The notes under the pieces were generated by a model. It was given only the letters and a program-made list of their open reading frames with translations, had not been told where the DNA came from and did not search any database. Of a DNA stretch of 64,000 bases, positions 8,071 to 48,219 are shown piece by piece. The position numbers and the translations under genes were made by a program. Position 1 is the stretch's first letter, and each line of letters begins with the position of its first letter. Origin of the DNA: Bartonella raoultii. Its GTDB lineage: Bacteria > Pseudomonadota > Alphaproteobacteria > Rhizobiales > Rhizobiaceae. The stretch covers positions 62,001 to 126,000 of the forward strand of contig NZ_JAIFRO010000002.1 in the NCBI RefSeq assembly GCF_019659805.1, in the 5' to 3' direction.

Positions 8071-8541
8071 GGGTGTTTTCTTATAATAAAAAATGTCACT
8101 GTCAGTAAAACAGTAGATTAATTAAGAGTTCAGTATAACATGAAAGATAAGGCAATTATTTAGAAAAATTATGTCTAAAAAATATTTTCTGTTATGATGC
8201 GTTAAATGCATAAAATATATTTATCATTCAGAGAATGATTATCATAACGATAAAACTATATTGCTATATGTTTCATCACAAAGATACGTCGCAAAGGTTT
8301 AATTGTGATAACAGTTGAAATAGGGAATAAATATTTAAACTGACTGGGTAGAGTTTGAAACAAAAACAAACATAAATATTGTGTACAATACAATCGCTAG
8401 TAAATATTTATGCGGGCGATCACTGTAACGTCTCTTAATTGATGATATCAATGCCGGTAAAGAAAAGAATAAAAAATCGAGAACAATAATAAGCAGCTTT
8501 CTTTATTTTAAGGATAAGCATGGATCTGCATACAATGAATT
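8071..8541. other. Intergenic region with Fur-like palindrome and a startless open frame
   Basis: About 470 bases between thpR and HPr. It holds a perfect palindrome ATCATTC-AGA-GAATGAT (8223-8239) inside a TTATC-rich Fur-like sequence. On the minus strand, a 50-60 codon open frame ending at 8335 (LPALISSIKRRYSDRPHKYL, then hydrophobic) has no ATG or GTG start near its head. It may be a membrane-protein remnant. I cannot name it. Confidence 0.4.
8221..8252. promoter_or_regulatory. Fur-like palindromic site
   Basis: TTATCATTCAGAGAATGATT then ATCATAACGATAA. The core 7-3-7 palindrome is exact and the bases resemble the GATAATGATAATCATTATC Fur consensus. No iron gene adjoins it, so the target is unclear. 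Confidence 0.35.
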
Positions 8542-8838
8542 TTAATTTTCTTCTCCAAATTTATTATTGATGAGTTTTTCAAGAGCATTAAGAACATCAG
8601 TTGCTTCTGGTCCCCAAACACGAATCGTGAGATTGCAACCAGAAGAAGCTGCTAACATCATAAGTCCCATAATCGATGAACCGCCCACGATTTTTCCATC
8701 TTTTTCAACTTCAACAATAGCGTTGAAATTTTCAACAGTTTGAACAAATTTTGCAGAAGCACGTGCATGCAGCCCACGTTTATTGCAGATATTGAAATGA
8801 CGACTTAGTTTAAATGGAAGAGGGTTTTTGGAAAGCAT
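8542..8838 (-). CDS. HPr-family phosphocarrier protein
   Basis: A small phosphocarrier of the regulatory phosphotransferase system. RGLHARASAKFV carries the His phosphorylated from EI, and GGSSIMGLMMLAAS carries the regulatory Ser (Ser46 equivalent) that HPr kinase would modify. With the start at 8838 it has 98 residues, a normal size. An upstream in-frame ATG at 8877 would add 13 residues and overlap the EIIA gene by 14 bases; both starts lack a clear Shine-Dalgarno. It is the last gene of a minus-strand run BatR, BatS, HprK, EIIA-Man, HPr. No sugar permease (EIIB/C) is nearby, so the role is regulatory rather than sugar uptake. Confidence 0.93.
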   Translation of the reverse strand: MLSKNPLPFKLSRHFNICNKRGLHARASAKFVQTVENFNAIVEVEKDGKIVGGSSIMGLMMLAASSGCNLTIRVWGPEATDVLNALEKLINNKFGEEN

Positions 8839-8863
8839 CGGTGTTTCATTATCCGCTATAAAA

Positions 8864-9253
8864 TTATACTGGTACATTAATATATTTACGTCCTGCTTCT
8901 TGTGCTATTCTTAAAGCCTTTGATAATGAAATATCAGGACATTGGCGAATAGAAATGAGTTTAATGAGCATAGGTAAATTAACACCCGCAATCATTTCAA
9001 TACGTCCTTTTTCAATAACAGAAATTGCTATATTTGAAGGTGTTCCACCAAACACATCTGTTAATATAATCACGCCATGATTTGTATTTGTAGAGGAAAC
9101 TGCAGCGATAATATCATTTCGACGCTGATCTATATCATCATCGGGATAGATGCATATTGTTGCAAACTTTTCTTGTGTTCCAAGAACATGTTCTACAGCG
9201 CGTAGAAATTCAACAGCCAATTCACCGTGCGTTACAAGCACGAGTCCAATCAT
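8864..9253 (-). CDS. PTS EIIA-Man family regulatory protein
   Basis: 129 residues, ManX/EIIA-mannose fold. MIGLVLVTHGELAVEF contains the phosphorylated His9; TDVFGGTPSNIA is the conserved substrate-loop motif of the family. The protein stands alone, without EIIB, C or D domains. In alphaproteobacteria such lone EIIA-Man proteins sit beside HprK and HPr and are thought to report phosphoenolpyruvate or nitrogen state. It is placed between hprK and the HPr gene. Confidence 0.92.
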   Translation of the reverse strand: MIGLVLVTHGELAVEFLRAVEHVLGTQEKFATICIYPDDDIDQRRNDIIAAVSSTNTNHGVIILTDVFGGTPSNIAISVIEKGRIEMIAGVNLPMLIKLISIRQCPDISLSKALRIAQEAGRKYINVPV

Positions 9254-9384
9254 TTATGCAAACTCCTGTTAACTAAAGGATCTGATCATATGGTAGGAAA
9301 TGTATTTTACAAAGCTTTGTTCTTCTGCCAAGCAAAATTTGCAAAAAAAAGTAAAAAATGTGATTTTTTATATTTAGAAAAAAA

Positions 9385-9849
9385 TTAGACTGATTTACGC
9401 CATATTTTTCTAAAAAAGAATGCCTCAATGGCTTGACAAATGGCTGTGCAATCTGCTTCACGAAGACTAGGAAGCTTTAAAAGAGGAATGTGTAGATCTG
9501 CAAATTGAAAAGTTTGATTTGTAAAAAAGCGTTCATATTCTGGACCGAGAAGAATAACGCAGTTAATCGCTGTCTGTTTTTTAAACTCTATTGTATAAAG
9601 TCCAGCACCACGAATTTCGATTCCTCCCTGTAAGCCTTCTGGAGTGTATCCATAAAGTTTTCCATTTTTTACACAAAGCACGGTATAATCATCACTGATA
9701 AGTTTTGCTTTACGGTTTGACCATTCAGCACGCTCGAGTAAAGCAAGGGTAAGGGTTGATTTTCCTGAACCAGAAGGACCTATAATTAACAGCCCTTTTC
9801 CTCCTAGTTGGAGGCAATTTGCATGGAGTATTTCATTTTTTGTTTTCAT
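9385..9849 (-). CDS. hprK: HPr kinase/phosphorylase, short alphaproteobacterial form
   Basis: Phosphorylates or dephosphorylates the regulatory serine of HPr. At 154 residues it holds only the catalytic domain; Firmicute HprK is about twice as long. The P-loop GPSGSGKS is at residues 24-31 and the HprK signature appears as GGIEIRGAGLYTIE. The missing N-terminal domain is the normal state in rhizobia and their relatives, not a truncation. It is only about 24 bases downstream of batS on the same strand, which suggests shared transcription with the two-component genes. Confidence 0.92.
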   Translation of the reverse strand: MKTKNEILHANCLQLGGKGLLIIGPSGSGKSTLTLALLERAEWSNRKAKLISDDYTVLCVKNGKLYGYTPEGLQGGIEIRGAGLYTIEFKKQTAINCVILLGPEYERFFTNQTFQFADLHIPLLKLPSLREADCTAICQAIEAFFFRKIWRKSV

Positions 9850-13982: not shown

Positions 13983-14820
13983 TGATTTACCCTCCTTTGT
14001 TAGATACATTTTTAAACGCTCTCTTTTCATATTTAGCAGAGTTTTTGTTTAAAAGAAAAGAAAGAATTTCTAAAGTTTCATTGTTGTTGCTCCGAAGAGG
14101 AAAAACATTGGATAGTTGCATTTTTAAGAAGGCGATAGGGCTTAAGAAGACAATATACTTAAAAGCGAAGAAATGGTCTTACAAATTTAAGAAATATATA
14201 GCTAAGAAAGGGAATATATTGGTTCTCTTCAAAGGCTAGTTAAAAAAATATTAAACAATAAAGCTGTTAGGAATAAAGGTGTGTAGAAGATATGACAGAT
14301 ACTATCCTTACAAATTAAGAATCTTTAGTAAAAGATTTTAGTATTATGGGAATGAATATGAAAAATGCTTTCTCATTATGAGTGTAGGGATATAATCTTC
14401 ATAAGCGATAGAGTGAAGAAAAGCTTATAATATTTATAATATAAATCTTTAGCGCTTGAGAAATCCTTTCATAAGATGACTTCTTGTAGCTATGAGAAGT
14501 TTATTGTCCTTATGTTTTAATTTTTATAGAATATATTTTGATAAGAGATAAGATATGTTACTATGTCCACGTTTTTAATAAATTATGGTATTTACACGTA
14601 AGTAGAATGCCTCTTTTAGAAGAAAAATTTTATTTTAGGAATGTTTCTCTCATTGTTCTCTTGTAGCGATAAGAGCCTGTTCTTATATACGAACCAGCAA
14701 GGCTGTTGCAGCTTGCGATTTTAATTATGTAATTTGAAGTGAAATGCAGGCTTTATTAAGGAGCTGTCTTAGGAAGATGCTTGATGAAGGTTGAGGTAGC
14801 TTGCTGAATGGAGATAAAAT
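13983..14820. other. Long intergenic region upstream of dnaK
   Basis: About 840 bases without a supported gene. An 88-codon plus-strand frame (13973-14239) is Lys/Leu-rich, has no similarity I know and overlaps the start of the copper-chaperone gene, so I do not call it. The region has three stem-loops of similar sequence (14397-14418, 14479-14498, 14658-14675) and a candidate RpoH promoter. I see no CIRCE element. Confidence 0.5.
14660..14688 (+). promoter_or_regulatory. Candidate heat-shock (sigma-32) promoter of dnaK
   Basis: CTTGTA (14660-14665), 16 bases, CTTATAT (14682-14688). This is close to the alphaproteobacterial RpoH pattern and is about 130 bases before the dnaK ATG. It overlaps a stem-loop. 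Read by eye only. Confidence 0.35.
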
Positions 14821-16874: not shown

Positions 16875-18017
16875 ATGAAAATTGATTATTATGAAGTTCT
16901 TGGCGTAACTCGTGAGTGTGATGATAAGAAGTTAAAGTCTGCTTTTCGTAAGTTAGCAATGCAGTATCATCCAGATCGCAACGCGGGGGATAAAGAAGCA
17001 GAGCGGAAATTTAAAGAAATTGGTGAAGCTTATGAAGTTCTGAAAGATCCTCAAAAACGTGCCGCCTATGATCGATTTGGTCACGCAGCTTTTGAAAATA
17101 GCGGCCGCGAAGGAGGAAATCCCTTTGGAGGGTTTGCTGCAAGTGGCGGATTTGCTGATATTTTTGAAGATTTTTTTGGCGAAATTATGGGAGGAATGCA
17201 GCGTAAGCGCAGTGATGGTCGTGAACGTGGTGCAGATTTAAGTTATAATATGGAAGTAACCTTGGAAGAGGCCTTTTCAGGAAAAACTGCACAAATTAAT
17301 ATTCCCAGTTCCGTTACTTGTGATATGTGTGAAGGCTCAGGTGCAAAAAAGGGCTCTAAACCACAAGTTTGTGGAACTTGTCATGGTTCTGGTCGTGTGC
17401 GTGCTGCACAAGGTTTCTTCTCCATTGAAAGAACATGTCACGTGTGTCATGGGCGGGGTGAAACCATTACTGATCCATGTCCAAAGTGCCAAGGAACCAG
17501 AAGAATAGAAAAAAAGCGCTCATTGAGTGTGAATATTCCTGTTGGTATTGAAGATGGTACGCGTATTCGTCTTTCTGGTGAGGGAGACGCTGGTATTCGT
17601 GGTGGTCCTAGTGGTGATCTTTATATTTTTCTTTCTGTTAAACCGCATGAATTTTTTCAACGTGAAGGAGCAGATTTACATTGTCGTGTTCCTATTTCAA
17701 TGGTTACAGCAGCTTTAGGAGGAGAATTTGAAATTTCTGATCTTGAAGGTGTTAAAGCGCGTGTAAAGATTCCAGAAGGAACACAACATGGACGTCAATT
17801 CCGCCTTAAAGGTAAAGGAATGCCAATGTTACGTCGCCAGCAAGCAAGGGGTGATCTTTATATTCATATCACGATTGAAACACCACAGAAACTAACGCAA
17901 GAGCAACGTGATTTGTTGCAAAAATTTGAAAAAATTTCAAACCATGATAATTCACCGCAATCGCATGGTTTTTTTGCACGTATGAAAGAATTTTTTGAGA
18001 GTATTTCTGGTGTTTAA
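16875..18017 (+). CDS. dnaJ: Chaperone DnaJ (Hsp40)
   Basis: 380 residues, full length. The J domain has [11 protein letters not shown] and the HPD motif at 32-34 (QYHPDRNAG). A Gly/Phe-rich stretch follows, then four zinc motifs: [24 protein letters not shown] and CPKCQGTR. The substrate-binding and dimer domains complete the protein. I start at the third in-frame ATG (16875), which gives the conserved [14 protein letters not shown] lies 7 bases upstream. It lies 158 bases after dnaK. Confidence 0.98.
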
Positions 18018-18917
18018 GTGCAAACTGTAAAATTGTTCAGTAAGCGACGAGAAATGATAAGCTATAAAAATAAAATTTGCGTGCTCTTTAAGTGAAAGAT
18101 TGTATATTTTTGCTACCGTAAATTGATGTTTTTTTGAGAGAAAGAACAAATAATCTCTCAGGAGAGAAGAGAAAAGTTTGATCTTACTCTAAGATGTTTT
18201 ACACAACGATTTTCATGTTGTGATGAGATGAATTGAGTGGTTATTTGTTTTTCTTTTAGAATGTTTTTTGTGTTTTTGGATGATATAGAACCCCGTAAGG
18301 TAAAAATGCACTGAAATGATTTTGCGGGCTTTGCAAGAAGATTGGTTAGGATTAAAATAGTGGATTATGCCACAAGTTTTAGAAAAACCGCTTTTCCTAT
18401 AACATATATGGGAGCAAGAATTCTCAATTACTGTTTTTGATTCCAATAATTTAAAAAGAAGACGAATTTTGTAGTAAAAATTTTTGCTTATTGGATGTGG
18501 ATATTTTGATAACTCCCTTACTTTTTATATGCGCTAATTTGACAGTTCATACCATCATAATCAAAAATTTTATATTCTTCTTAAAAATCAAGAGTTGGGT
18601 ATCTCTAGATTCATTGTTAAACATTCTATAATAGGATAAAAGGGAAGTTTAAATATACACTTGGTGTAGATTCAAAATTTTTCTTTCAAACTTTATACAT
18701 AAGGTCATAAAGCAATGGCATGTTGTACATCTATGGTATTTTTTTCTGTCAATTCTTTTGAAGGAAATTGTTTTTGTGGTATCTCATGCTTATTCCACTC
18801 GTAATTTAAAGAGAAGTTAATGATTTTTAGGGGAGACAACAGATAAAACAAAATATGTTTTCACTTTTCCTAAATTCTACTTAAGAAATGGTAAAAAGTG
18901 ATGAGGAGGCTCTTTTT
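18018..18917. other. 900-base region without a recognisable gene
   Basis: All six frames are broken by frequent stops. A 77-codon minus-strand frame (18213-18446) is open but has no known motif. Base composition is AT-rich and looks like decayed coding DNA. I found no tRNA and no clear structured RNA. Confidence 0.5.
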
Positions 18918-28305: not shown

Positions 28306-28893
28306 ATGCGGCACCTTTTGTTTTTAGGGGCAGTGGTGTTTCTGTTGGGGGGCTGTGCAACAAGCTCTCGTATCTATACGAACAATGCTTGCGTTATTTT
28401 GGCCCAAAAAAATGGTTTTTTTGATAATTGGGGAAAGGCTTCTAAAAGAGCAGAAATGCACTATGGAATTCCTATGTCTATTATTCTTGCAACCATTAAG
28501 TCGGAATCAGATTTTCGTTACAATGCACGTCCTCCACGAAAAAAATTGCTTGGTTTTATTCCATGGAAACGTCGGTCGACAGCCTATGGTTATTCCCAAG
28601 CACTTGACAGCACATGGGCAATGTATCTCCGCTCTACAGGAAAGACTTTTGCGCGGCGAACCAATTTTGCAGATGCCGCAGATTTTATTGGTTGGTACCA
28701 TCGCCAAACTGTGCAACGCAATGGTGTAAAATTTAATGATGCTTATAGACTGTATTTAAACTATCATATGGGGCATGGTGGTTATGCACGTAGTAAAGGA
28801 TATATAAACAATGCACTGGCACAAAAAGCGCAACGTATGGCAGATCTATCGAGACTTTATGAACAACAATTACAGACATGTGGATGGCGTTAA
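28306..28893 (+). CDS. Lipoprotein with lytic transglycosylase (SLT-like) domain
   Basis: 195 residues. The signal ends in a lipobox (LLGGC, Cys17), so it is likely anchored in a membrane facing the periplasm. The enzyme part has the SLT pattern: PMSIILATIKSESDFRYNA with probable catalytic Glu68, AYGYSQALDSTWAMY, and NYHMGHGGYAR. It would cleave peptidoglycan glycan strands. I start at 28306, since GAGGAAG lies about 9 bases upstream; an ATG at 28288 would give a weaker signal peptide. It stands alone. Confidence 0.85.
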   Translation: MRHLLFLGAVVFLLGGCATSSRIYTNNACVILAQKNGFFDNWGKASKRAEMHYGIPMSIILATIKSESDFRYNARPPRKKLLGFIPWKRRSTAYGYSQALDSTWAMYLRSTGKTFARRTNFADAADFIGWYHRQTVQRNGVKFNDAYRLYLNYHMGHGGYARSKGYINNALAQKAQRMADLSRLYEQQLQTCGWR

Positions 28894-29310
28894 AGAGACT
28901 TATCAAGATTTCTAATATAGAAATTGGATTGGTTATGAGATAAATTTAAATAGAGCATCTCATACAGTTTGAATGCGTAAGTCTGATTTTTGATTGCCTC
29001 ATTAAGGTCATGAGAGATAGAATTTTGGTATAGATTCGTATCACGTAAAGAATGTTTTATAACAGCTTTGATGAAAAAGAATGTTAAAGTTAAGAGATAC
29101 CAAATTTAAGATAAAAGCAAGATAAAGAAACAAATATTGTTCCCTAACAGATTCATGGCAATAAGAGTAAAGCCAAAGGCAACCGTATTTTTTTAATGGG
29201 AAACAGTTATAAAAATCTAAAAACGAAATTACTCCTCCTTCTTTTACCTAGAGAGGAAAATGCTAGATTATGCTTTTACAAAAAGGTTTTTGTCATTTTT
29301 AAAAAGCAAT
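28894..29310. other. Intergenic region with an open frame lacking a start
   Basis: About 420 bases. On the minus strand a stretch from about 29105 to 28890 stays open for some 72 codons (including LRDTNLYQNSISHDLNEAIK), but it begins at a stop and has no ATG, GTG or TTG near its head. A hydrophobic piece precedes it in another frame. It may be a frameshifted remnant. No family recognised. Confidence 0.4.
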
Positions 29311-29562
29311 TTAATGTAGAGTTACGATTTGTAGTTCATGTTCATTAGCTCCAGCAAGAGCGATAGAGCGCTCATCGGATAAAATAATAGGATAACCTGT
29401 CTCAGCAAAGAGGGCCCATATTGTAATGCCTGGGGTCATTGGCGGAAGATCTGGAAAATTTTTAGCCAAGTCATCTGTACAAACTTTTTTTAAATAAGCA
29501 ATTTGCCCCACATCAGAGGAGGATACATCTTGCAACGATAAGTTTTGTTTATGCTCTCCCAT
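29311..29562 (-). CDS. DUF1150 family protein
   Basis: 83 residues. Conserved features of DUF1150 are seen: VGQIAYLKKV near the middle, then ITIWALFAETGYPIILSDER and a closing ANEHELQIVTLH. Function unknown. In Hyphomicrobiales such proteins are regularly encoded right after a small heat-shock protein, as here (26 bases after the Hsp20 gene, same strand), so a role linked to the chaperone is possible. Confidence 0.82.
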   Translation of the reverse strand: MGEHKQNLSLQDVSSSDVGQIAYLKKVCTDDLAKNFPDLPPMTPGITIWALFAETGYPIILSDERSIALAGANEHELQIVTLH

Positions 29563-29588
29563 TTTACTGTTCCTTTACGCTTTAACTT

Positions 29589-30020
29589 TTATAACTCATC
29601 ACTACTTACATTGATAGGAATATGCTTTGTTTGTTTTTTTGATTTTGGTTGGTATAGATTAATAGATAAAAGACCATTTTTCAACTCAGCATTTGTAACA
29701 TGCATTCCCTCAGCAAGAACAAAAATACGTTGAAACTGACGTGCAGCTATACCGCGATATAAATATTGGTGGTTTTGATTGTCTGTTTGCTTACCATAAA
29801 TGATCAATTGATTATCATCTAGTAAAATACTGAGGTTATCAACTTTAAATCCAGCAACAGCCAAAGTTATGCGTATATGGTTTGCATCATCACTCTTATG
29901 TAAACGTTCAATATTATAAGCTGGATAAGCTTCATCAGCTTTACCAATACGTCGCAATGTTTTTTCTACTGTTTCAAATCCTAAAAGAAAAGGATTGGAG
30001 AAAGGCGTCGCATGTGTCAT
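29589..30020 (-). CDS. Small heat-shock protein Hsp20 (IbpA-like)
   Basis: 143 residues. The alpha-crystallin domain spans about 35-130: YPAYNIERLHKSDDANHIRI, VAGFKVDNLSILLDDNQLII, QYLYRGIAARQFQRIFVLAEG, and the GLLSINLY motif (GxLxI type). It binds unfolding proteins and passes them to DnaK. I start at 30020 because AGGA lies 8 bases upstream; the frame is open to 30038. It forms a unit with the DUF1150 gene. Confidence 0.94.
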   Translation of the reverse strand: MTHATPFSNPFLLGFETVEKTLRRIGKADEAYPAYNIERLHKSDDANHIRITLAVAGFKVDNLSILLDDNQLIIYGKQTDNQNHQYLYRGIAARQFQRIFVLAEGMHVTNAELKNGLLSINLYQPKSKKQTKHIPINVSSDEL

Positions 30021-30138: not shown

Positions 30139-30879
30139 ATGGCTCAAAAAACAATAAAATTGTCAAAGGCGCAACAATCTTCAGAAACATTGTATAGCAA
30201 AAAGGAAATTGCGGAAATATTTCGCCGTTTTTCTGTTCAACGCCCAACACCTAAGAGTGATCTTATTTATACAAATGTTTTCACTCTTTTGATTGCTGTT
30301 GTTCTTTCGGCGCAAGCGACAGATACAAGCGTTAATAAAGCGACAAAAGAATTATTTCGCTTTGCTGATAATCCGGAAAAGATGGTTGCATTGGGGGAAG
30401 AAGAGATAGCACATCATATTCGTACGATTGGTCTTTGGCGTGCAAAAGCGCGTAATGTTTATGCACTTTGTAACTGTTTGATTGATCACTATGATGGTCA
30501 AGTTCCTAATAATCGTGAAGCTCTTATGGCACTTCCTGGTGTAGGACGTAAAACAGCTAATGTTATTTTGAATGTTGCTTTTGGACAGCCTACATTGGCG
30601 GTAGACACACATATTTTTCGTCTTGGTAACCGTCTTGGTTTAGCACCTGGCAAAACACCAGATATTGTTGAAGAAAAGTTGCTAAAGATTATACCTGTCC
30701 GTTATCTTCATCATGCGCATCATTGGCTTATTTTACATGGGCGTTATATTTGTCAAGCGCGTAAAGCACAATGTACACAATGTATCATTGCTGATTTATG
30801 TAAAGCAGCAATGAAAACAAATGCTATTCCAGCACCGTTGGTTGAAGTTCAAGGTAACGGTGCTCCGATATTTTTTTGA
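30139..30879 (+). CDS. nth: Endonuclease III (DNA glycosylase/AP lyase)
   Basis: 246 residues. It removes oxidised pyrimidines from DNA. The helix-hairpin-helix reads LPGVGRKTANVIL with catalytic Lys, and the catalytic Asp is in LAVDTHIFRLGNRLG. The [4Fe-4S] ligands are C-x6-C-x2-C-x5-C in CQARKAQCTQCIIADLC. I prefer the ATG at 30139, preceded by AAGAGAG; an ATG at 30103 would add 12 residues with no better site. Confidence 0.96.
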   Translation: MAQKTIKLSKAQQSSETLYSKKEIAEIFRRFSVQRPTPKSDLIYTNVFTLLIAVVLSAQATDTSVNKATKELFRFADNPEKMVALGEEEIAHHIRTIGLWRAKARNVYALCNCLIDHYDGQVPNNREALMALPGVGRKTANVILNVAFGQPTLAVDTHIFRLGNRLGLAPGKTPDIVEEKLLKIIPVRYLHHAHHWLILHGRYICQARKAQCTQCIIADLCKAAMKTNAIPAPLVEVQGNGAPIFF

Positions 30880-30905
30880 TATGGTCTTGCTATTTTGTGT
30901 ATACT
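30876..30905 (+). promoter_or_regulatory. Candidate promoter of rpmI-rplT
   Basis: TTGATA (30876-30881), 18 bases, TATACT (30900-30905). It overlaps the end of nth and precedes the structured leader of rpmI by a suitable distance. Confidence 0.5.
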
Positions 30906-30933
30906 AGCTTATGAAAGCGCTGTTGAACCGTCC

Positions 30934-30986
30934 GGCAGGGCATGCCGTGGCTGTTTAAATGCTTATTCAGGCATTGGTCCGCCTGA
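30934..30986 (+). promoter_or_regulatory. Structured leader upstream of rpmI
   Basis: Three short hairpins lie in the leader: GGCA-GGGCA-TGCC (30934-30946), AATGC-8 nt-GCATT (30958-30975) and TCAGGC-8 nt-GCCTGA (30967-30986). The last two share bases 30967-30975 and cannot form together. L35-L20 operons in other bacteria are autoregulated by L20 binding their leader; whether this leader works that way is inference. Confidence 0.4.
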
Positions 30987-31049
30987 GTGAAGAGGTTTTT
31001 ATACTGAATCGAAGGTCCATTTGAAAATATTAATGTATGGAGTAGCAAA

Positions 31050-31253
31050 ATGCCCAAGATGAAGACCAAATCATCCGCTAAGAAGCGTTTTAAAATCACT
31101 GCGTTAGGCAAAGTTAAAGTAGCAGCTGCAGGTAAGCGACACGGCATGATTAAACGTTCGAATAAATTTATTCGTGATGCGCGTGGAACAATGGTTTTGA
31201 GTGAACAAGATGCTAAGAAAGTTATTCAGCATTATTTGCCGAATGGTTCTTAA
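31050..31253 (+). CDS. rpmI: 50S ribosomal protein L35
   Basis: 67 residues, the normal length. [20 protein letters not shown] and [11 protein letters not shown] are typical of bL35. First gene of rpmI-rplT, 33 bases before rplT. In many bacteria infC precedes it, but infC is 31 kb away in this window. Confidence 0.98.
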
Positions 31254-31286
31254 ACCTTACGCTTTTGATTTTAAGGAGATTATTAT

Positions 31287-31688
31287 ATGGCACGTGTCAA
31301 AAGAGGTGTGACAGCGCACGCTAAACATAAAAAAGTTCTCAAACAGGCAGAAGGTTTTTACGGTCGGCGTAAGAATACCATTCGTACTGCTAAGATAGCG
31401 GTTGATCGTTCAAAGCAGTATGCTTATCGTGATCGCAAGAATAGGAAACGTACTTTCCGTGCTTTGTGGATTCAGAGAATTAATGCTGCTGTTCGTGCAG
31501 AAGGTTTAACCTATGGGCGCTTTATTGATGGCTTGTCAAAAGCAGGTATTGAGGTTGATCGTAAAGTTCTTTCAGATATAGCAATTCATGAGGCTGAAGC
31601 GTTTTCTGCTTTGGTTTCCTCTGCAAAGAAAGCTTTAGAGTATTTGAAGGATACAACGCCTAATGCTTTTGAAGGTGCTGTCAAATAA
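31287..31688 (+). CDS. rplT: 50S ribosomal protein L20
   Basis: 133 residues. It begins [20 protein letters not shown], with [13 protein letters not shown] and [20 protein letters not shown], all conserved in bL20. AAGGAG lies 9 bases upstream. Needed early in 50S assembly and, in other bacteria, represses its own operon. Confidence 0.98.
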
Positions 31689-31727
31689 GCCAGTCGTGTT
31701 CTCTTAAAATATTCATTGATTCGAGGT

Positions 31728-31760
31728 CCCGTGCTGGTTATGACGAGTGCGGGATTTTTG
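31728..31760 (+). terminator. Terminator after rplT
   Basis: CCCGTGCT, loop, AGTGCGGG, followed by ATTTTTG. The stem uses two G-T pairs. pheS follows 23 bases later, so it separates the ribosomal genes from pheST. Confidence 0.55.
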
Positions 31761-31782
31761 TATTAAAAAAATAGGCACAAAG

Positions 31783-32868
31783 ATGAGTGATATTGAGCGT
31801 CTGGAACAAGAAATTTGCTCGGCTTTAGAAGCAGCGAGTGATGAACAGGCACTTGAAACAGTGCGTATTGCGGCATTGGGCAAAAAAGGTAGTATTTCTG
31901 AAAAATTAAAAGCATTAGGGAATATGGACGCTGAAGAGCGGCAAAAAATTGGGCCTGTTCTTAATGGATTAAAAAATCGCATTTTAGAATTATGGGCACA
32001 AAAGCGTGACCTGCTAAAGCGCCAAGCAATGGATGCACGTCTTTCTCGTGAAAAAGTTGATATCACTTTACCTATTCGTTCTTCGCCTGTGGAACGGGGA
32101 CGTATTCATCCTATCTCACAGGTCATTGAGGAAATTATAGCCATTTATACAAAAATGGGTTTCACTCTTGCAGAGGGTCCAGATATCGAAACGGATTATT
32201 ATAATTTTACGGCATTGAACTTTCCTGAAGGGCATCCTGCGCGTGAAATGCATGATACTTTCTTTTTCGATGTTGATAAAACAGGAGAACGAAAGTTATT
32301 ACGTACCCATACATCTCCTGTGCAAATCCGTACGATGGAAAAGCAGAAAGCTCCGATACGTATCATTATTCCTGGAAAAACATATCGGATGGATTCGGAT
32401 TCAACACATTCGCCTATGTTTCATCAGGTAGAAGGTCTTGTTATTGATAAAACTTCCACCATTGCACATATGATGTGGCTTCATGAGACTTTTTGTAAAG
32501 CCTTTTTTGAAGTACCCTCTGTAAAGATGCGTTTTCGGCCTTCTTTCTTTCCTTTTACTGAACCCTCTATGGAAGTGGATATTCAATGTGATCGCTCTGG
32601 TTTAGAAGTTAAGTTTGGGGAAGGAAAGGATTGGCTGGAAATTTTAGGATGTGGAATGGTGCATCCTCATGTTTTGAAAAATGTTGGTTTAGATCCTGAT
32701 GAGTATCAGGGATTTGCATGGGGAATGGGCATTGATCGTATTGCTATGTTGAAATATGGGATGCCTGATTTACGGGCTTTTTTTGATGCTGATCTGCGTT
32801 GGTTGGACCATTATGGTTTTCGTTGTTTTGATATGCCTGCTTTTTTCTCTGATTTAAGAAATAGGTGA
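31783..32868 (+). CDS. pheS: Phenylalanyl-tRNA synthetase alpha chain
   Basis: 361 residues. An N-terminal coiled coil (about 1-90) contacts tRNA; the class II catalytic core follows, with [50 protein letters not shown] and the C-terminal [19 protein letters not shown] motif (seen as [18 protein letters not shown]). The ATG at 31783 gives [11 protein letters not shown]; an upstream GTG at 31747 lies in the terminator stem and is unlikely. Forms the alpha2-beta2 enzyme with pheT, 31 bases downstream. Confidence 0.98.
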
Positions 32869-38203: not shown

Positions 38204-39105
38204 TTGACCAATTACTTCTTCCTTTTCAATTTTCTTTTATGTTGAAAGGTATGCTTATTGTCATGATCCTTTCTATTCCAATGGCGATGCTTTCTTGTTT
38301 TCTCATTTTAAAAGGATGGGCCTTGTTAGGTGATGCCATTTCTCATGCGGTGTTTCCTGGTGTTGTTGTGGGCTATATGACAACGCCGTGGGTGATAGCA
38401 TTTTTGACTTCTTTGCCATTTGCTTGGTTTCAAAATATGCGCTCGGCTAATATTACTATGGCTTTAATTACTTGCGGCGCTTTTGTTGCCGGTATGGTTT
38501 GCGCCCTTGCAACAGGTTTTTTAGGGAGCAATAGCCGGATTAAACAGGATACGGTGATGGGAGTTGTTTTTTCATCTATGTTTGGCTTAGGGCTTGTATT
38601 AGCAACATCTATTTATAGTAGCTTAGATTTGAACCATATCCTTTTCGGTAATCTTTTGGGTGTGAACTGGCTTGATATTACGCAAACTGCAATCATTTCT
38701 TGCATTGTCACTTTTATTTTAGGGGCAAAATGGCGCGATTTTATGTTGTATATTTTTGATTCTGTTCAAGGTCGTGCAATGGGATTACGAATCTCGATGC
38801 TTCATTACATCCTTTTAACGATGATTTCTCTTACAATTGTTGCAGCTTTAAAAGCTATTGGTATTGTTTTAGTGATTTCTTTGTTAATCGCACCGGGAGC
38901 AATTGCTTATCTTATAACGAAACGATTTTCTTTTATGTTGGTGATTGCTATGCTTGTTGCAGCTCTTTCTGGTTTTTTAGGAATTTATTTAAGCTTATTT
39001 ATAGGATCTGATTCTGCTTCTACGATTGTATTAATTCTAACATTAATCTTTATAACCATTTTTTTATTGATGTTTTTTCGTCGACCAACGATGCAGGAAA
39101 TTTAA
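38200..39105 (+). CDS. sitD: Metal ABC transporter permease, second subunit
   Basis: 301 residues, ABC-3 permease homologous to sitC. GDAISHAVFPGVVVGYMT and the coupling loop DSVQGRAMGLRISML are present. Two different permeases, as in sitABCD/yfeABCD systems, make the membrane channel. A good terminator follows. Confidence 0.93.
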   Translation: MIDQLLLPFQFSFMLKGMLIVMILSIPMAMLSCFLILKGWALLGDAISHAVFPGVVVGYMTTPWVIAFLTSLPFAWFQNMRSANITMALITCGAFVAGMVCALATGFLGSNSRIKQDTVMGVVFSSMFGLGLVLATSIYSSLDLNHILFGNLLGVNWLDITQTAIISCIVTFILGAKWRDFMLYIFDSVQGRAMGLRISMLHYILLTMISLTIVAALKAIGIVLVISLLIAPGAIAYLITKRFSFMLVIAMLVAALSGFLGIYLSLFIGSDSASTIVLILTLIFITIFLLMFFRRPTMQEI

Positions 39106-39261
39106 GCATAGTTCATTTCTGCATATCAGCCATGCATTTTTGTGTATTGTCTCTTATTCCTGTTTTAATTAAAAAATAAAGCGCTAGATTGTTTTTCCTC
39201 CTAATATCTAGCAAGTGGATGCAGTGTGTATTCTCCCCCCAGAGCTGCATTCGTAACTAAG

Positions 39262-39298
39262 AGGCTGCATTGATTCAGTTCTGCAGCCTTTTTATTTT
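39262..39298 (+). terminator. Terminator of the sitABCD operon
   Basis: AGGCTGCA, 12-base loop, TGCAGCCT, then TTTTATTTTTT. Perfect 8-bp GC-rich stem with a T-tract. Confidence 0.8.
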
Positions 39299-39340
39299 TT
39301 ATATTCTAAAAAGTTTATTCTGATTTCTTGAAAACTTTGA

Positions 39341-39399
39341 GATAATTATCATATTCCATAGGCTGTTTTGTATTTTAGCAGAGATTATCACAGGATAAT
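39341..39399. promoter_or_regulatory. Two Fur-like palindromes upstream of the YbaN-type gene
   Basis: GATAATTATC (39341-39350) is an exact palindrome, and ATTATC-ACAG-GATAAT (39384-39399) is a second. Both resemble iron-regulator half-sites and lie within 145 bases of the start of the next gene. Confidence 0.35.
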
Positions 39400-39482
39400 A
39401 TATTTATGAATAGAGTGATTGTGCACTAAAACAGTATAAGAAGAAAAAATGTCGTTTTCATAAAGGAAAATAGTACGAACAA

Positions 39483-39869
39483 ATGCAAAAAGACTTTAAA
39501 ACATATTACCCTTTACGTGTTTTTACTTCTATAGTGGGATGGGTAATGATTATATTGGCTATTATCGGTATCGTATTACCTATTATGCCAACAGTGCCTT
39601 TTTTGTTAGTTGCTTCATGGTGTTTTACACGTTCTTCACCACGTTTTCATCGTTGGTTGCATAATCATCGCGTTTTTGGTCCCCCTATTAAACAGTGGGA
39701 AGAAAAGAGAGCTATTTCCACATTTGTTAAAGTTTTTGCAGTGATGAGTATGGCAGGTGGTTTTTTATCTTTTTGGGTAATGTTACATCCTACTTTGTGG
39801 CTATCTTTATCAGTGATGATGATTTTGCTTTTGATTGCTCTTTATATTGTGACGCGTCCATCTGCATAA
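39483..39869 (+). CDS. YbaN-type inner membrane protein (DUF454)
   Basis: 128 residues. Three hydrophobic stretches, with the DUF454 core IIGIVLPIMPTVPFLLVASWCFTRS (seen across residues about 25-52), then SSPRFHRWLHNHRVFGPPIKQWEE. Function unknown. E. coli ybaN and Haemophilus relatives have sometimes been linked to iron or heme genes; here it follows the sit operon with Fur-like sites between them. Confidence 0.85.
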   Translation: MQKDFKTYYPLRVFTSIVGWVMIILAIIGIVLPIMPTVPFLLVASWCFTRSSPRFHRWLHNHRVFGPPIKQWEEKRAISTFVKVFAVMSMAGGFLSFWVMLHPTLWLSLSVMMILLLIALYIVTRPSA

Positions 39870-40196
39870 TGATAGAAATAAAAGGTTTATGAGCCAAATA
39901 TGTTAGTGTTTTAAAATTGTTTACAAAGATTTTTCTCTCTCATGTTGAGAGATAAGAGAGACTCACTAAAAGAATAATTTTTTTGAAAGCACTTGATTGT
40001 GTAGAAGAATATATTGATAAAATCATTTTATATGCAAAGAAAATTGTATAGGAATCCTTTAATAAAAAGTGCATAAAGTCGCTTTGGAGAGCGATGTAAA
40101 GCGCTTTCAGAAAAAAATTATTATATTAACTTATTGATAGCTGATAATGCGTTCTATAGCCGTTTGTTTTTAATTTTAGACAGATGAATTTAGAAT
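39870..40196. other. Intergenic spacer, nothing seen
   Basis: About 330 AT-rich bases between convergent genes, without an open frame of note or a good terminator hairpin. Confidence 0.5.
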
Positions 40197-41507
40197 TTAG
40201 GTTTTTATAGATCTAGCTATCTGTTTTTCATTTTTATTGCCAAAGAAATTGAGATAACGTTGTATTTCTTGCGGATCACCGATAGTTTTTTCAGGATTAT
40301 CAGAAAGTTTTACGGCAGGTCTACCATTGGCATGCGTTACTTTACAAACAAGGGAAAGCGCATCAAAAGATATCATTTCTTGGGGAGAACAGCCTGCAAA
40401 GTCATTTGTTAAATCTGTTCCCCAGCCAAATCCCATACGCACTTTCCCATGGAAATGGTGATAGGTTTTTTCAATGGTATTAACATCAAGTGCATCAGAA
40501 AAAATCAATAATTTCTCATGTGGATCTTTTCCTTTTTCTTTCCACCATTCTATAATACGTTCGCCACCTTCAATAGGTGGAGCACTATCGGGCCTGAAAC
40601 CCGTCCAATCAGCCACCCAATCTGGTGCGCTATGTAAGAATGCTTCTGTGCCAAAGGTATCAGGCAAGACAATGAGAAGATTTCCACCATAATAACGGTT
40701 CCAGTCTTGCAAGACTTTATAGGGTGCTCTACGTAAATCGTCATCGTTTTCGGCAAGAGCAGCAATGACCATAGGCAGTTCATGAGCATTGGTTCCAAGA
40801 GCTTCTAAATCTGTATCCATGGCAAGAAGAACATTGGAAGTCCCAGTAAAAGAATCACCAATGCCTTCTTTTAATGCTTCAACACACCAGCGCTGCCATA
40901 AAAAAGAATGACGGCGTCTTGTGCCAAAGTCAGATATTTTAATATCAGATAATTTTTTAAGGCGTTCCACTTTACTCCACATTTTTGCTTTAGCACGTGC
41001 ATAGAGTATATCAAGAGCAAAGCGATCTAATTTTTTCATAGCAGCACGTGAGCGTAATTCACTAATAATGGCAAGGACAGGAATTTCCCACATAGAGCTA
41101 TTAGCCCATGGACCATGGAAATGAAGAATATATTGACCATCTTTGCGGGTGAGTTCATATTCTGGTAATTGAAAATTCTCAAGCCAATGAAGAAAATCTG
41201 GTTCGAAAATTTGTTTACGTCCATAAAATGTATTACCAGCCAGCCAGATCATTTCCTTTTTTGTAAAGCGCAAACTGAGGGTGTGATCAAGTTGAGCACG
41301 CAACTCGCCTTCATCAATCTCATCGGCAAGACGTATTGTTTTGGTACGGTTTATAAGGGAAAAAGTAACATTGACATCAGGGTAAAGTCCCCAAATCATC
41401 TGCACCATAAGAAGTTTGTAAAAATCCGTATCGAGAAGTGAACGAATAATGGGATCAAGTTTCCAGGTATGGTTGTAAACACGTCTTGCAATATCTGGGT
41501 GATTCAT
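40197..41507 (-). CDS. pncB: Nicotinate phosphoribosyltransferase
   Basis: 436 residues. It joins nicotinate and PRPP in the salvage route to NAD. Motifs: [19 protein letters not shown] near the N-terminus, [53 protein letters not shown] and [16 protein letters not shown] start at 41507 with AAGGGAT just upstream; the frame is open to 41555. Salvage fits a host-dependent life, but other NAD genes are not in view. Confidence 0.96.
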
Positions 41508-41741
41508 GATCCCTTTTCTTTCAGTTTTATAAAATTTAAAATGATTGTATAGCAAAATAAATCCATATAGGAACTATAACAACTCTAAGGTTTTGGGCAA
41601 GAATAAAAAACCTTTTATTGTTCTGCGTGTTTAAGATTTCAGTATCTGTATGATTTTATGGTGACTTGTTTTTTCTAGCTTTATTCCTGCATGAATATCG
41701 ACATATTTTTTACCATTAACACAGAGTATATTTTCATTTCC

Positions 41742-42893
41742 TCATTTCATTTTAATAGTATAAATAGCATTAGAATATTTTATTTTCGCTTCATATTGGG
41801 GACAAAAGGAAGGCAAATTGGGATATAAAAATAATTGGTTAGCTTGAAGATAAATTTCAAGAAGAGTTTTTATTGTAGTACGGTAAAACCAACCCGCTAA
41901 GCCTCGTATACCATGTCCAACCACCTTGTCTACAGTGCGGTTGAACGGCATAAATATCTACTGCCATGACATAAGATTCAACACGATAAGTTGTGGGGTT
42001 TTGTCCCTGTATAATTGGGTTAATCATAGAAAACAAAAGCGCAAGCGTTAAAAAAGAGACGGGAATTGCAATGCTTCTTATTTTTGAACAACAGAAATAT
42101 CGTATCCATTTGATAAATAAAGGTGGGGTATAATTATAGGCTTTTTCAAAATTATAACGTCCATCATTGATAAGATACTACTCAACAGAGGATTAGTTGT
42201 AATGATCAGTCTCTTTAGGGGTTGCATTTGCCATTTCTGTAGCTTTGCATGCAACTTCTAATTCATTTTTTTCGATTACTTGTCGATAGATATTACGTGA
42301 TTGAGAATCAATTTTGGAAAAATCACTTTTTGCACGTAAGATAGTATCGACAGAACTGACAGTTTTAAACCATGCTGTCCAATCAATATCATCTACAGCC
42401 TTAAGAGCAATGTATAATATTATCCGTGGTCACATCATCTGCTGCTTGGCGTGTATGTTCATCAGCTGTTGCAATTTCTAGACCACTGCCTTGGCTTTTT
42501 AATTGTTTTTCAAGTCAGTTTAATGCTGTTGTTGAATCGATAGATGCACAGCATAAACGATAGAATAAATATGCTGAAAAAGTTGAATCAATAGTGAAGG
42601 GTTCGTATCGTGCAAAAAGAGAGTGTAATTTTGTTTCATTTTCTGCAAGGAAAATTTTATGAGCAAGATGATGCATATACCGTACTTTTTCAAGATGTAC
42701 TGAAAGACGACGAATATTTTCAATAAAGAAGCATTTATAGAACAGAAGATGGTGCTCATAACGCACCGATTTTAAAAGCACATACTTTTTGAAATTCATT
42801 GATAATGGCAGTGAGTGTGCTTCTATTTGTATGTGCAATATAAAGCCAAGCTAAAACAAAATACGTGGTATATCTGCTTTTCGTTGATAAAGG
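41742..42893 (-). pseudogene. ndvB: Remnant of cyclic beta-1,2-glucan synthase (ndvB/chvB/cgs)
   Basis: Read on the minus strand from high to low coordinates, several frames give pieces I recognise from NdvB/Cgs, a membrane protein of about 2,800 residues. FVLAWLYIAHTNRSTLTA to KIGAL-stop-APSS lies at 42893-42750. FFIENIRRLSVHLEKVR, then AYLFYRL, then ALN-stop-LEKQLKSQG and DEHTRQAADDVTTDNII lie at about 42730-42401. DDIDWTAWFKTVSSVDTILR, SQSRNIYRQVIEK and YLINDGRYNFEKAYNYTPP follow in a third frame to about 42050. The same frame then jumps to the C-terminal end (MINPI, TYRVESYVMAVDIYAVQPH, GGWTWYT), and a last frameshift gives AGWFYRTTIKTLLEIYL to the end at 41742. Trp codons have become TGA at 42756-42758 and 42515-42517. 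About 2,000 residues of the middle are gone. A weak extension may reach 43010. Confidence 0.72.
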
Positions 42894-43379
42894 GGGAGTT
42901 GTTTTATGAAGGAGTGAGATAAGCTGTGCTATAACTGTTGTATGGTTTTATCGTTGTGAATAGCCATATCACTGGTATGAAAGGCACGAAGGATAAGCTT
43001 AGCATTTTCGTTTAATCTTCTGTAAAAATTATTTTCTCCTTTATATTTAGGAAGGAAGATTTATTTTTGAGAGGCTATCTCATAACCCAATTTATAAAGA
43101 TCTTCCTGTAGCTTATAAATTGAACGCATTGGAAAATCAGTTTTATTGAGATGATGATTTCCTATTCGCTTTGAAAAAAAATACGTTATGAAAGATATTG
43201 TGAATGCCATAATATTTTATACGATTCAAAGTATGTCACTTTTTCTCTTTGAGAGAGTATGAGTATTTTATTATAATCATTAATATGAACAGTTTATAAA
43301 AAATAACAAATTTTTTGTTTTACTGTAAGAATAGTTGCAATTTTTGATGAGACAATAGAAAAAGCAAGTATATAACGTC
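42894..43379. other. Decayed region between the ndvB remnant and rpsA
   Basis: About 490 bases with no supported gene. A short minus-strand frame (MRSIYKLQEDLYKLGYEIAS) lies near 43080-43150 and is not recognised. Very AT-rich near 43200-43350. Confidence 0.4.
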
Positions 43380-43448: not shown

Positions 43449-45149
43449 TTAATCTTGTTCTTGCTTTTTCAAAGCTGCGCCGAGAATATCACCAAGAGAA
43501 GCACCTGAATCTGTAGAACCATACTGTGCAACAGCTTCTTTTTCTTCTGCGATTTCTAAGGCTTTGATAGACACTGAAATTTTACGTGTTTTCTTGTCAA
43601 ATGCTGTGATACGGGCATCAACTTTTTGACCAATTGCAAAACGTTCAGGACGCTGCTCATCACGATCACGCGCAAGATCAGCACGACGAATGGTTGTTTC
43701 AAGATTATGATCAATTAATTTCACATCAATGTCATTATCATTCACAGCAGTTACTTCACATGTTACGACAGCGCCTTTACGAAGCTCACCTGAAGCTGCT
43801 GCTTCTCCAACTTTATCACTGGAAAGTTGCTTAATCCCAAGAGAGATACGCTCTTTTTCAACATCAACATCAAGAACTATGGCTTTAACAATATCTCCTT
43901 TATTATAAGTATCAATGACTTGTTCACCAGGACGATTCCAATCAAGATCAGAAAGATGGACCATACCGTCTACATCGCCTTCAAGTCCAATAAAGAGACC
44001 AAATTCCGTTTTATTTTTGACTTCTCCTTCAATTTGTGAATTGACAGGATATTTATTGGCAAAAGCAATCCATGGGTTTTCAAATGTCTGCTTTAAGCCA
44101 AGAGAGATCCGTCGTTTAGAAGGATCAATTTCAAGAACAACCACTTCCACTTCTTGTGATGTAGATAAAATTTTTCCTGGATGAACATTTTTCTTTGTCC
44201 AACTCATTTCAGAAACGTGGATAAGTCCTTCGATTCCTGGTTCAATTTCCACAAAACCACCGTAATCAGTAATGTTGGTAACAGCTCCAGTAATTTTTTT
44301 ACCTATTGGATATTTAGCACTAATGCTTTCCCAAGGGTCATTTTCAAGTTGCTTCATTCCAAGAGAGATACGGTGTGTATCTTGATTAATGCGAATAATT
44401 TGTACTTTAATCGGTTGACCAATTGTAAGGATTTCAGATGGATGGTTAACACGCCGCCAAGCAATATCTGTAACGTGTAAGAGACCATCAATTCCACCAA
44501 GATCAACAAAGGCGCCATAATCCGTAATATTTTTAACAACACCCTCAACAATTTGGTTTTCTTCAAGATTTTGAACAATTTCTGAACGTTGTTCAGCACG
44601 ACTTTCTTCTAATACAGTACGACGAGAGACAACAATATTGCCACGACGGCGATCCATTTTTAGAATTTCAAAGGATTGTGCGTTATGCATAAGAGGTGAA
44701 ACATCACGAATAGGACGAATATCGACTTGGCTGCGAGGTAAGAAAGCGACAGCGCCATCGAGATCAACTGTAAATCCTCCTTTTACTTGGCTGAAGATAA
44801 TCCCATCAACACGTGCACCTGCATTAAATTTTTCCTCCAAACGGATCCAACTTTCTTCACGGCGTGCTTTTTCACGCGATAGAACGGCTTCACCCATCGC
44901 ATTTTCAATGCGCTCGATATAAACTTCAACTTCATCACCAGCTCGCAAGGAACCGTCTTTTCCTTTTGCTCCAAATTCTTTGAGTGGAATACGTCCTTCG
45001 ACTTTTAGTCCAGCATCAATAATAGCCATGTCTTTTTCGATTGCAATGACACGACCTTTAACAACGGATCCTTCATTAAGATCATTTGTTTGGAAGGATT
45101 CTGCCAAAAGGGCTTCGAAATCCGCTGTTGTGGGATTGTATTGTGACAT
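43449..45149 (-). CDS. rpsA: 30S ribosomal protein S1
   Basis: 566 residues with six S1 (OB-fold) repeats. Repeats start near VVKGRVIAIEKDMAIIDAGL, RVDGIIFSQVKGGFTVDL, IVEGVVKNITDYGAFVDLGG, KITGAVTNITDYGGFVEIEP, QIEGEVKNKTEFGLFIGLEG and AVVTCEVTAVNDNDIDVKLI. S1 brings mRNA to the 30S subunit, mainly those with weak Shine-Dalgarno sites, which are common in this window. It follows cmk, with two leader hairpins in between. Confidence 0.98.
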   Translation of the reverse strand: MSQYNPTTADFEALLAESFQTNDLNEGSVVKGRVIAIEKDMAIIDAGLKVEGRIPLKEFGAKGKDGSLRAGDEVEVYIERIENAMGEAVLSREKARREESWIRLEEKFNAGARVDGIIFSQVKGGFTVDLDGAVAFLPRSQVDIRPIRDVSPLMHNAQSFEILKMDRRRGNIVVSRRTVLEESRAEQRSEIVQNLEENQIVEGVVKNITDYGAFVDLGGIDGLLHVTDIAWRRVNHPSEILTIGQPIKVQIIRINQDTHRISLGMKQLENDPWESISAKYPIGKKITGAVTNITDYGGFVEIEPGIEGLIHVSEMSWTKKNVHPGKILSTSQEVEVVVLEIDPSKRRISLGLKQTFENPWIAFANKYPVNSQIEGEVKNKTEFGLFIGLEGDVDGMVHLSDLDWNRPGEQVIDTYNKGDIVKAIVLDVDVEKERISLGIKQLSSDKVGEAAASGELRKGAVVTCEVTAVNDNDIDVKLIDHNLETTIRRADLARDRDEQRPERFAIGQKVDARITAFDKKTRKISVSIKALEIAEEKEAVAQYGSTDSGASLGDILGAALKKQEQD

Positions 45150-47275: not shown

Positions 47276-47433
47276 TTACGAAATTAAATGTCTTTTAGCA
47301 CATGCTGTAAAAGCCGTCATGAGGAAATCTGCGCAGAACGATGTATTTATCTTTGACAAAGACATTATTTTTCGATTAAGCACCATAAAATTTATTTTTT
47401 AATGGAATGATAGTAATCAAAGGGGCATGGTCC

Positions 47434-47817
47434 ATGGCAAAACAAGAACTTGGAACGAAGCGTATTGATCCGGAAACGGGAAAGAAGTTTTATGATCTTA
47501 ATCGCGACCCTATTGTGTCGCCTTATACAGGAATTTCTTATCCGCGTTCTTACTTTGAGGTTGCGGCAGCTGAAGCAAATAATGAAGAAGAAATTGATAC
47601 TGAAGAGCTTGATACAGCACTTGAAAAATCTGCTTTTATGCTTCTTGAAGATGATGATGACGATTCTAAGGATGATGATGATCTGCCTGATTTGGAAGAT
47701 AGTGATGTGGATCTTGGTGATGATGATGACACGTTTTTATCTCATGATGAAGACGATGAGGATGATGACGTTACCGATATTCTTGGAAGTGGTGTTTCTA
47801 ATGATGATGATGTTTAA
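47434..47817 (+). CDS. TIGR02300-family protein with acidic tail
   Basis: 127 residues. The first 45 residues (KQELGTKRIDPETGKKFYDL, NRDPIVSPYTGISYP) are conserved across Hyphomicrobiales under TIGR02300; function unknown. The C-terminal half is an Asp/Glu-rich disordered tail with runs of Asp (DDDDDSKDDDD), encoded by repeated GAT triplets. I start at 47434; the frame is open to 47407. It lies between aroA (divergent) and tRNA-Ala. Confidence 0.88.
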   Translation: MAKQELGTKRIDPETGKKFYDLNRDPIVSPYTGISYPRSYFEVAAAEANNEEEIDTEELDTALEKSAFMLLEDDDDDSKDDDDLPDLEDSDVDLGDDDDTFLSHDEDDEDDDVTDILGSGVSNDDDV

Positions 47818-47940
47818 AAGCTGTAAAAGAAGTATTCTTTTATTAAATATAAATTCTTCTTGATATTCAGATTTTCTCGTCCTAAAAATCCACTTAAGGC
47901 TATTGATTTGTCCTTTTAGGAAAAAGAAGGTCTTTGAATA

Positions 47941-48016
<76 letters not shown>

Positions 48017-48116
48017 AAAAATAAAAATATTTTTTAAAAAGTACTCAAATCCTATTAGAATAAATAGTTACTATTAAATGTAATGGATATAAAGCTTCAA
48101 ATTTTGTGTTTCAAAT

Positions 48117-48138
48117 GCCTCAGCATGAGGCTTTTTTT
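48117..48138 (+). terminator. Terminator after tRNA-Ala
   Basis: GCCTC, loop AGCAT, GAGGC, then seven T. About 100 bases after the tRNA and 80 before ilvD. Confidence 0.72.
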
Positions 48139-48219
48139 ATTTCTTGTGTGAAAGCTCTTGTTTTTAAGCAAAGATTGCAGCACAAAAGAACAAATGGAAT
48201 TATTTGAGGGGAAAAAATA

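What the first reader, a model, noticed from the sequence alone, without database searches (positions are those of the whole stretch)
41742..42893. Decayed, internally deleted cyclic beta-1,2-glucan synthase gene
Six-frame reading of a stretch that looks empty gives ordered matches to NdvB/ChvB/Cgs across at least three frames. They cover part of the N-terminal region (FFIENIRRL, DEHTRQAADDV, DDIDWTAWFKTVSSVD, SRNIYRQVIEK, INDGRYNFEKAY) joined directly to the C-terminal glycoside-phosphorylase end (TYRVESYVMAVDIYAVQPH, GGWTWYT, AGWFYRTTIKTLLEIYL). Two Trp codons are now TGA. Relatives such as Brucella and Agrobacterium need this polymer for host interaction, so the loss is biologically meaningful. 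The deletion junction lies near 42040.
Basis: partly seen in the sequence, partly recalled or inferred. Interest (0 to 1): 0.75.

Follow-up and report, generated by a model that had tools for sequence, protein, structure and literature searches.

The report
Dead cyclic-glucan pathway in a Bartonella
A Bartonella genome carries the shrunken wreck of the gene for a ring-shaped sugar that related bacteria use in their hosts, and the likely exporter and modifier genes for the same sugar are wrecked too, as has apparently happened several times over in this genus.

Summary
The finding is confirmed, and it is larger than stated. [quoted passage not shown] It holds 7 premature stops, four one-base frameshifts and one roughly 6.9-kb interior deletion (about residues 434-2728 of 2862) near 42027-42036, which removes every catalytic region. 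The genome has no other match to the GH94 domain. Of 71 Bartonella genomes, 62 keep an open cgs at that place; seven have deeply decayed copies with different lesions; an eighth (a draft) probably does; a ninth has one base missing in a poly-A run. New: the unlinked exporter gene (chvA/ndvA/cgt) is broken in the same eight and in none of the 61 open-cgs genomes where it is fully seen. The OpgC-type modifier gene is broken in five of the eight and in none of 61. In this genome all three are wrecked, while 19 of 19 other frames tested around them are whole. So a whole pathway was lost, 5-8 times in the genus. Eight searches of one library listed no paper reporting it. Relaxed need is the likeliest cause; selected loss is not excluded.

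The parts
42413..43210 (-). 5' part of the cgs remnant (about residues 6-297 of intact Cgs, N-terminal domain), from the ATG; stops, frameshifts and small losses inside
   Evidence: tblastn 56% to B. taylorii Cgs, E 1e-119; start codon and stops; indels
42027..42408 (-). second N-terminal segment (residues about 299-433); by inference it ends in what would be the first membrane helix
   Evidence: tblastn 64%; alignment to solved A. tumefaciens Cgs
42027..42036 (-). junction of the interior deletion (about 6.9 kb, residues about 434-2728 lost); the two sides meet in one reading frame; only a short T/G-rich overlap is shared
41893..42036 (-). start of the retained C-terminal part (residues 2729-2776)
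   Evidence: tblastn 73%
41631..41903 (-). end of the C-terminal part in another frame (residues 2773-2862) with the ancestral stop codon at 41631-41633
   Evidence: tblastn 61%; stop check
40197..41507 (-). pncB, intact flanking gene, next to cgs or its remnant in 71 of 71 Bartonella genomes
43449..45149 (-). rpsA, intact flanking gene; found upstream in 57 of 71 genomes

Best explanation
[quoted passage not shown] The ancestor made the polymer with Cgs, moved it to the periplasm with a ChvA/NdvA-type ABC exporter and modified it with an OpgC/Cgm-type membrane enzyme. In the window's lineage the polymer became dispensable. Cgs was inactivated and shrank by small lesions and one interior deletion bounded by the needed neighbours rpsA and pncB. 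With no substrate left, exporter and modifier lost constraint and decayed at their own loci. The same happened separately in several other Bartonella lineages. Shown: the three wrecks, their differing lesions, and the match between them across genomes. Inferred: that OpgC acts on this polymer in Bartonella, the order of events, and relaxed need rather than selection as the cause.
For: Remnant with ancestral start and stop, 7 stops, frameshifts and deletion. No GH94-domain match in the genome. Open gene at the same place in 62 of 71 genomes. Exporter remnant of 710 bp between rluC and alaS, where 13 intact relatives have 2.07-2.72 kb; interior lost, stops. OpgC remnant with 5 stops and a frame change. 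chvA broken in the same 8 genomes as cgs and in none of 61 open-cgs genomes fully seen. opgC broken in 5 of the 8 and in none of 61. Private changes in the remnant spread over codon positions (pos2/pos3 rate 0.58 against 0.18 summed over intact copies). Neighbours whole.
Against: Function was not measured. The link of Bartonella OpgC to this polymer rests on co-decay and on Brucella Cgm. Nothing shows which gene fell first. opgC is still open in 3 of the 8 (G009, G013, G069). The remnant of G001 does not show the relaxed codon pattern (0.15, on 12 private changes), while G022, whose cgs has only one indel, does (0.55 on 26 changes), so small counts make this measure noisy. The eighth case, G031, is a 600-contig draft, and its chvA shows one frame change only.
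Confidence: 0.9

Rival explanations
1. Selected loss: getting rid of the polymer was favoured in some blood-stage Bartonella, for instance because cyclic glucan alarms dendritic cells or is costly in an osmotically constant niche.
For: Repeated loss, 5-8 times, each time of synthase and exporter together. Brucella cyclic glucan activates dendritic cells through TLR4 (PMC3499565, passages), and Brucella cgs/cgt mutants provoke less spleen enlargement in mice (PMC4077732, passages). All losses lie in the 57 genomes outside the bee/B. tamiae group.
Against: 8 of 57 against 0 of 14 is not a strong contrast. 48 of those 57 genomes keep an open cgs. Slow piecemeal decay in G009, G013 and G016 looks like drift after loss of need.
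Confidence: 0.2
2. The remnant keeps a residual role: a short peptide, an RNA, or the promoter and terminator of pncB/rpsA.
For: Parts of both gene ends, next to rpsA and pncB, survive in 4 of 4 lineages with large interior deletions (G000, G001, G006, G069). ORFs of 107 and 69 aa exist.
Against: No Pfam match above cut-off and no Rfam match; the pieces lie in different frames; keeping the ends is expected if deletions into rpsA or pncB are costly.
Confidence: 0.05
3. Sequencing or assembly artefact.
For: The genome is a 30-contig draft; in other genomes single indels (G022, poly-A run) may be errors.
Against: Seven stops plus frameshifts plus a 6.9-kb loss in one gene; the same pathway broken at two further loci; genome called 99.99% complete; 19 of 19 other frames tested around the three loci are whole.
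Confidence: 0.02

Closest known systems
[quoted passage not shown] solved A. tumefaciens enzyme, PDB 8rf0)
   Same: Sequence of N-terminal domain and C-terminal end; position upstream of pncB as in Brucella/Ochrobactrum loci
   Different: Glycosyltransferase, cyclase and phosphorylase regions deleted; reading frame broken many times
Brucella cgs-cgt-cgm pathway (PMC4077732, passages)
   Same: The three genes that decay together here match synthase, exporter and modifier
   Different: In this genome all three are wrecked; in B. abortus synthesis and export matter for host interaction and the modifier for low-osmolarity growth
Parallel gene loss in host-restricted bacteria
   Same: Same pathway lost separately in related lineages, with graded stages of decay
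   Different: Concerns a polymer regarded as a host-interaction factor in relatives; no report for Bartonella in the searches made

Membership tests
Cgs/NdvB (working enzyme) | Homology to Cgs at the ancestral place | tested here: met
Cgs/NdvB (working enzyme) | GT84 glycosyltransferase, cyclase and GH94 active sites (A. tumefaciens D624/D739, D1104/E1300, D2393/D2528 per PMC10901819 passages) | tested here: not met
   Deletion spans query 434-2728, roughly 427-2707 in the solved chain, the second figure by offset; PF06165 absent from the genome
Cgs/NdvB (working enzyme) | One open reading frame of about 2800-2900 residues | tested here: not met
Pseudogene | Several disabling lesions with intact orthologues in relatives | tested here: met
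Pseudogene | Relaxed codon-position pattern | tested here: met
   G000 0.58 against 0.18 in intact copies, on 45 private changes; noisy in other genomes
Pathway loss | Exporter and modifier of the same polymer also disabled | tested here: met
   that OpgC modifies this polymer in Bartonella is inferred
Pathway loss | Polymer absent from cells | not testable with these tools
   needs chemistry
Replacement by another periplasmic glucan system (OpgG/MdoG type) | MdoG (PF04349) in the genome | tested here: not met
   0 of 11 Bartonella genomes searched (8 with broken cgs, 3 intact); control rings in E. coli

The most novel reading that the evidence does not exclude
Loss of periplasmic cyclic glucan is a recurrent, selected step in the adaptation of Bartonella lineages to particular mammals, shedding an immune-visible polymer. 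Species at different stages of decay then form a natural experiment on whether this 'required' factor is needed in the blood niche.
Probability: 0.2. Interest if true: 0.75.

Novelty: new member of a known kind. Interest (0 to 1): 0.55.

Why it matters
Cyclic beta-1,2-glucan is treated as a host-interaction factor of Brucella and Agrobacterium (PMC10901819, start of abstract in a search listing) and of rhizobia (recalled). Close mammal-infecting relatives that dropped synthase and exporter, and often the modifier, several times over suggest that life in a mammalian host is possible without it. They also give a ready set of loss and intact species to compare. The co-decay links the Bartonella OpgC homologue to this polymer.

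Tried and rejected
Tried without result: a name for the window's species. On the tree its nearest rows by path are G050 (strain ML69XJBT) and G052 (ML70XJBT.G), with weak support (90/61); its highest identity is to G064, 89%. Species names for G handles come only from identical pncB DNA in named records. 'B. australis' for G006 is recalled from its contig length and comes from no call.

Shared stop positions as evidence of common descent: they also occur between clearly unrelated lineages (positions 472, 1214, 2506 and others), so the one shared by G013 and G016 (1585) decides nothing. Some near 2860-2870 are probably just the normal stops.

Junction mechanism: only a short T/G-rich overlap at the breakpoints, which could be chance.

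Window 31708-32862 first looked like a second broken gene (2 stops against a relative's frame). Reading it showed that the stops lie before the start of an open frame that I take from recall to be pheS.

Two 'broken' neighbours are artefacts of stop-to-stop reference frames: an antisense frame inside rpsA, and the 5' extension of pncB (flagged in G001, G006 and also in intact G023). pncB of G001 and G006 is open to its end.

Clade tests: holding G000+G001 together is rejected (p 0.019); G009+G069 (p 0.241) and G013+G016 (p 0.111) are not, so each of those pairs could be one event. The seven deep cases are thus 5-7 events, and G031 adds one if real.

The independent-pairs sign test gives p 0.0625 with the seven deep cases (5 pairs) and 0.031 with G031 added (6 pairs). 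In both runs I entered the chvA state as equal to the cgs state because the genomes were the same, so the p only reflects the number of pairs. For opgC the tests are not significant (median p 0.25 and 0.125).

Full report
What was checked. Nine intact Cgs proteins from fetched loci were compared with the window. Nine of nine gave four ordered minus-strand segments between about 43216 and 41634. The best E-values with the B. taylorii protein are 1e-119 and 4e-45; one reversed and one shuffled window gave no hit under E=1. The remnant begins at the ancestral ATG (43210) and ends at the ancestral TAA (41631). Inside are 7 premature stops. Against the intact copies of the clade there are four one-base indels in the coding part, in-frame losses of 54, 12, 12 and 21 bases, and the large deletion (as placed by the alignment). 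The deletion takes about residues 434-2728, roughly 6.9 kb, and its two sides meet in the same frame. The rpsA-pncB distance is 1944 bp, against about 8.8-9.2 kb in relatives with a full-length gene. By alignment to the solved A. tumefaciens enzyme and the active-site positions given in PMC10901819 (passages), all catalytic regions are gone. What is left is most of the N-terminal domain and the C-terminal end. Three short ORFs in the remnant match no Pfam family above cut-off, and 41400-43500 matches no Rfam family at gathering score. The GH94 domain family PF06165 is not found in the 30-contig genome.

The same place in the genus. pncB was found in 71 of 71 Bartonella genomes, and the stretch beside it was fetched for the 70 others (71 loci, since G052 has two copies); with the window that makes 72 loci. 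An open frame over 2700 residues lies there in 63 of 72 loci, that is 62 of 71 genomes. The other nine are as follows. G000 (this genome), G001 and G006 have large interior deletions. G069 (B. vinsonii subsp. vinsonii by identical pncB) has a loss of about 2.9 kb. G009 (B. vinsonii subsp. berkhoffii), G013 and G016 (B. doshiae) are full length with many stops and frame changes. G031 (B. queenslandensis AUST/NH15, a 600-contig draft) has stops and frame changes. G022 has one base missing in a poly-A run and is not counted as a loss. The end points differ in the four copies with large deletions.

The rest of the pathway. The exporter family model (TIGR01192) was searched in the 71 genomes. No true copy scores in G000 and G006, where only paralogues appear, and it is broken in G001, G009, G013, G016 and G069. 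G031 has one frame change near the start. In G062 the gene is cut by a contig end. The other 62 genomes have it without stops. The model's cut-off alone would have missed part of this, since three broken copies (G001, G016, G069) still pass it. Locus comparison finds remnants between rluC and alaS in all seven deep cases: 710 bp are left in G000 and 885 bp in G006, against 2.07-2.72 kb in 13 intact relatives. The OpgC model (PF10129) finds one locus per genome. It is broken in G000, G001, G006, G016 and G031, cut by a contig end in G062, and without stops in the other 65, which include G009, G013, G069 and G022. Locus comparison agrees for the 15 genomes fetched. In Brucella abortus the three genes are synthase, transporter and succinyl modifier of one polymer (PMC4077732, passages). 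That Bartonella OpgC is the modifier is my inference.

Is the decay specific to this pathway? Reading frames of 150 residues or more around the three loci of G064 were used as reference: 30 frames, of which 7 were dropped before the count because fewer than four of the compared genomes had them whole, leaving 23. In G000 all 23 were scored and 4 flagged: cgs, chvA, opgC and an antisense frame inside rpsA that is no gene. The other 19 are whole. In the other seven broken-cgs genomes the only further flag is the 5' extension of pncB in G001 and G006, an artefact. chvA of G031 passed this coarse test. The loci hold largely housekeeping genes, so this is a control for sequence quality more than for dispensability.

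How many losses. On a tree of rpsA plus pncB for 71 genomes (14 rows bear pncB only), the seven deep cases need seven changes, and eight with G031. G005, with an open gene, falls between the two B. vinsonii subspecies. Holding G000 with G001 is rejected (p 0.019), but G009 with G069 (p 0.241) and G013 with G016 (p 0.111) are not. So the range is 5-7 for the deep cases and up to 8 with G031.

Relaxed constraint. At sites that never vary among 34 intact copies of the large clade of 42 genomes, changes private to G000 occur at rates 0.064, 0.070 and 0.120 at codon positions 1, 2 and 3. The sum over the intact controls is 0.0079, 0.0037 and 0.0207. The pos2/pos3 ratio is 0.58 in G000, between about 0.6 and 0.75 in G009, G013, G016 and G069, 0.38 in G031 and 0.18 in intact copies. 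Against the pattern: G001 gives 0.15 on 12 changes, and G022, which has one indel only, gives 0.55 on 26 changes. G006 lies outside that clade and was not in this test.

No replacement of the MdoG type was found in 8 broken and 3 intact genomes.

Literature. Eight searches of one open-access library listed no paper on loss of this pathway in Bartonella. Five of these lists were capped (15 of 57, 15 of 154, 10 of 25, 15 of 57 and 10 of 242), and most subscription papers are not in the library. I saw passages only of PMC4077732, PMC10901819, PMC3499565, PMC2691993, PMC4726272, PMC10684924, PMC3610622 and PMC12661939; the last three have no occurrence of 'glucan' in the main text held. The rest I saw as search listings.

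Conclusion. Each part is of a known kind; the pattern in this genus is what deserves follow-up.

Noticed in passing
L130 (G040): pncB itself is split over two overlapping matches in different frames with stops; either a frameshift or a draft error in that genome.
   Followed up: no
L112 (G022): cgs is open except for one base missing in a poly-A run, and its private changes show a relaxed pattern; early decay, phase variation or sequencing error. chvA and opgC are open.
   Followed up: partly
14 bee-associated/B. tamiae-type genomes (G003, G004, G014, G043-G045, G056-G063): cgs and pncB stay adjacent but rpsA was not found in the fetched stretch upstream, so the rpsA-cgs neighbourhood may be younger than cgs-pncB.
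   Followed up: no
L142, L143 (G052): The cgs-pncB locus occurs on two contigs with identical pncB; the assembly is flagged 10% contaminated, so a duplicated assembly is likely.
   Followed up: no
L056 (Brucella oryzae): Upstream of pncB the longest forward frames are only 1452 and 774 residues where the other Brucella/Ochrobactrum loci have about 2870-2930; possibly a broken cgs or a draft error.
   Followed up: no
window 8122-9387, 14049-14817, 18015-18884, 28891-29591, 30877-31743, 39103-40199, 47276-48207: Other stretches over 700 bases without a reading frame of 150 residues; not examined for further gene remnants.
   Followed up: no
G000, G006 chvA; G000, G001, G006, G069 cgs: The large deletions take the interior and spare parts of both gene ends; probably because neighbours are needed, but regulatory signals at the ends were not tested.
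   Followed up: partly
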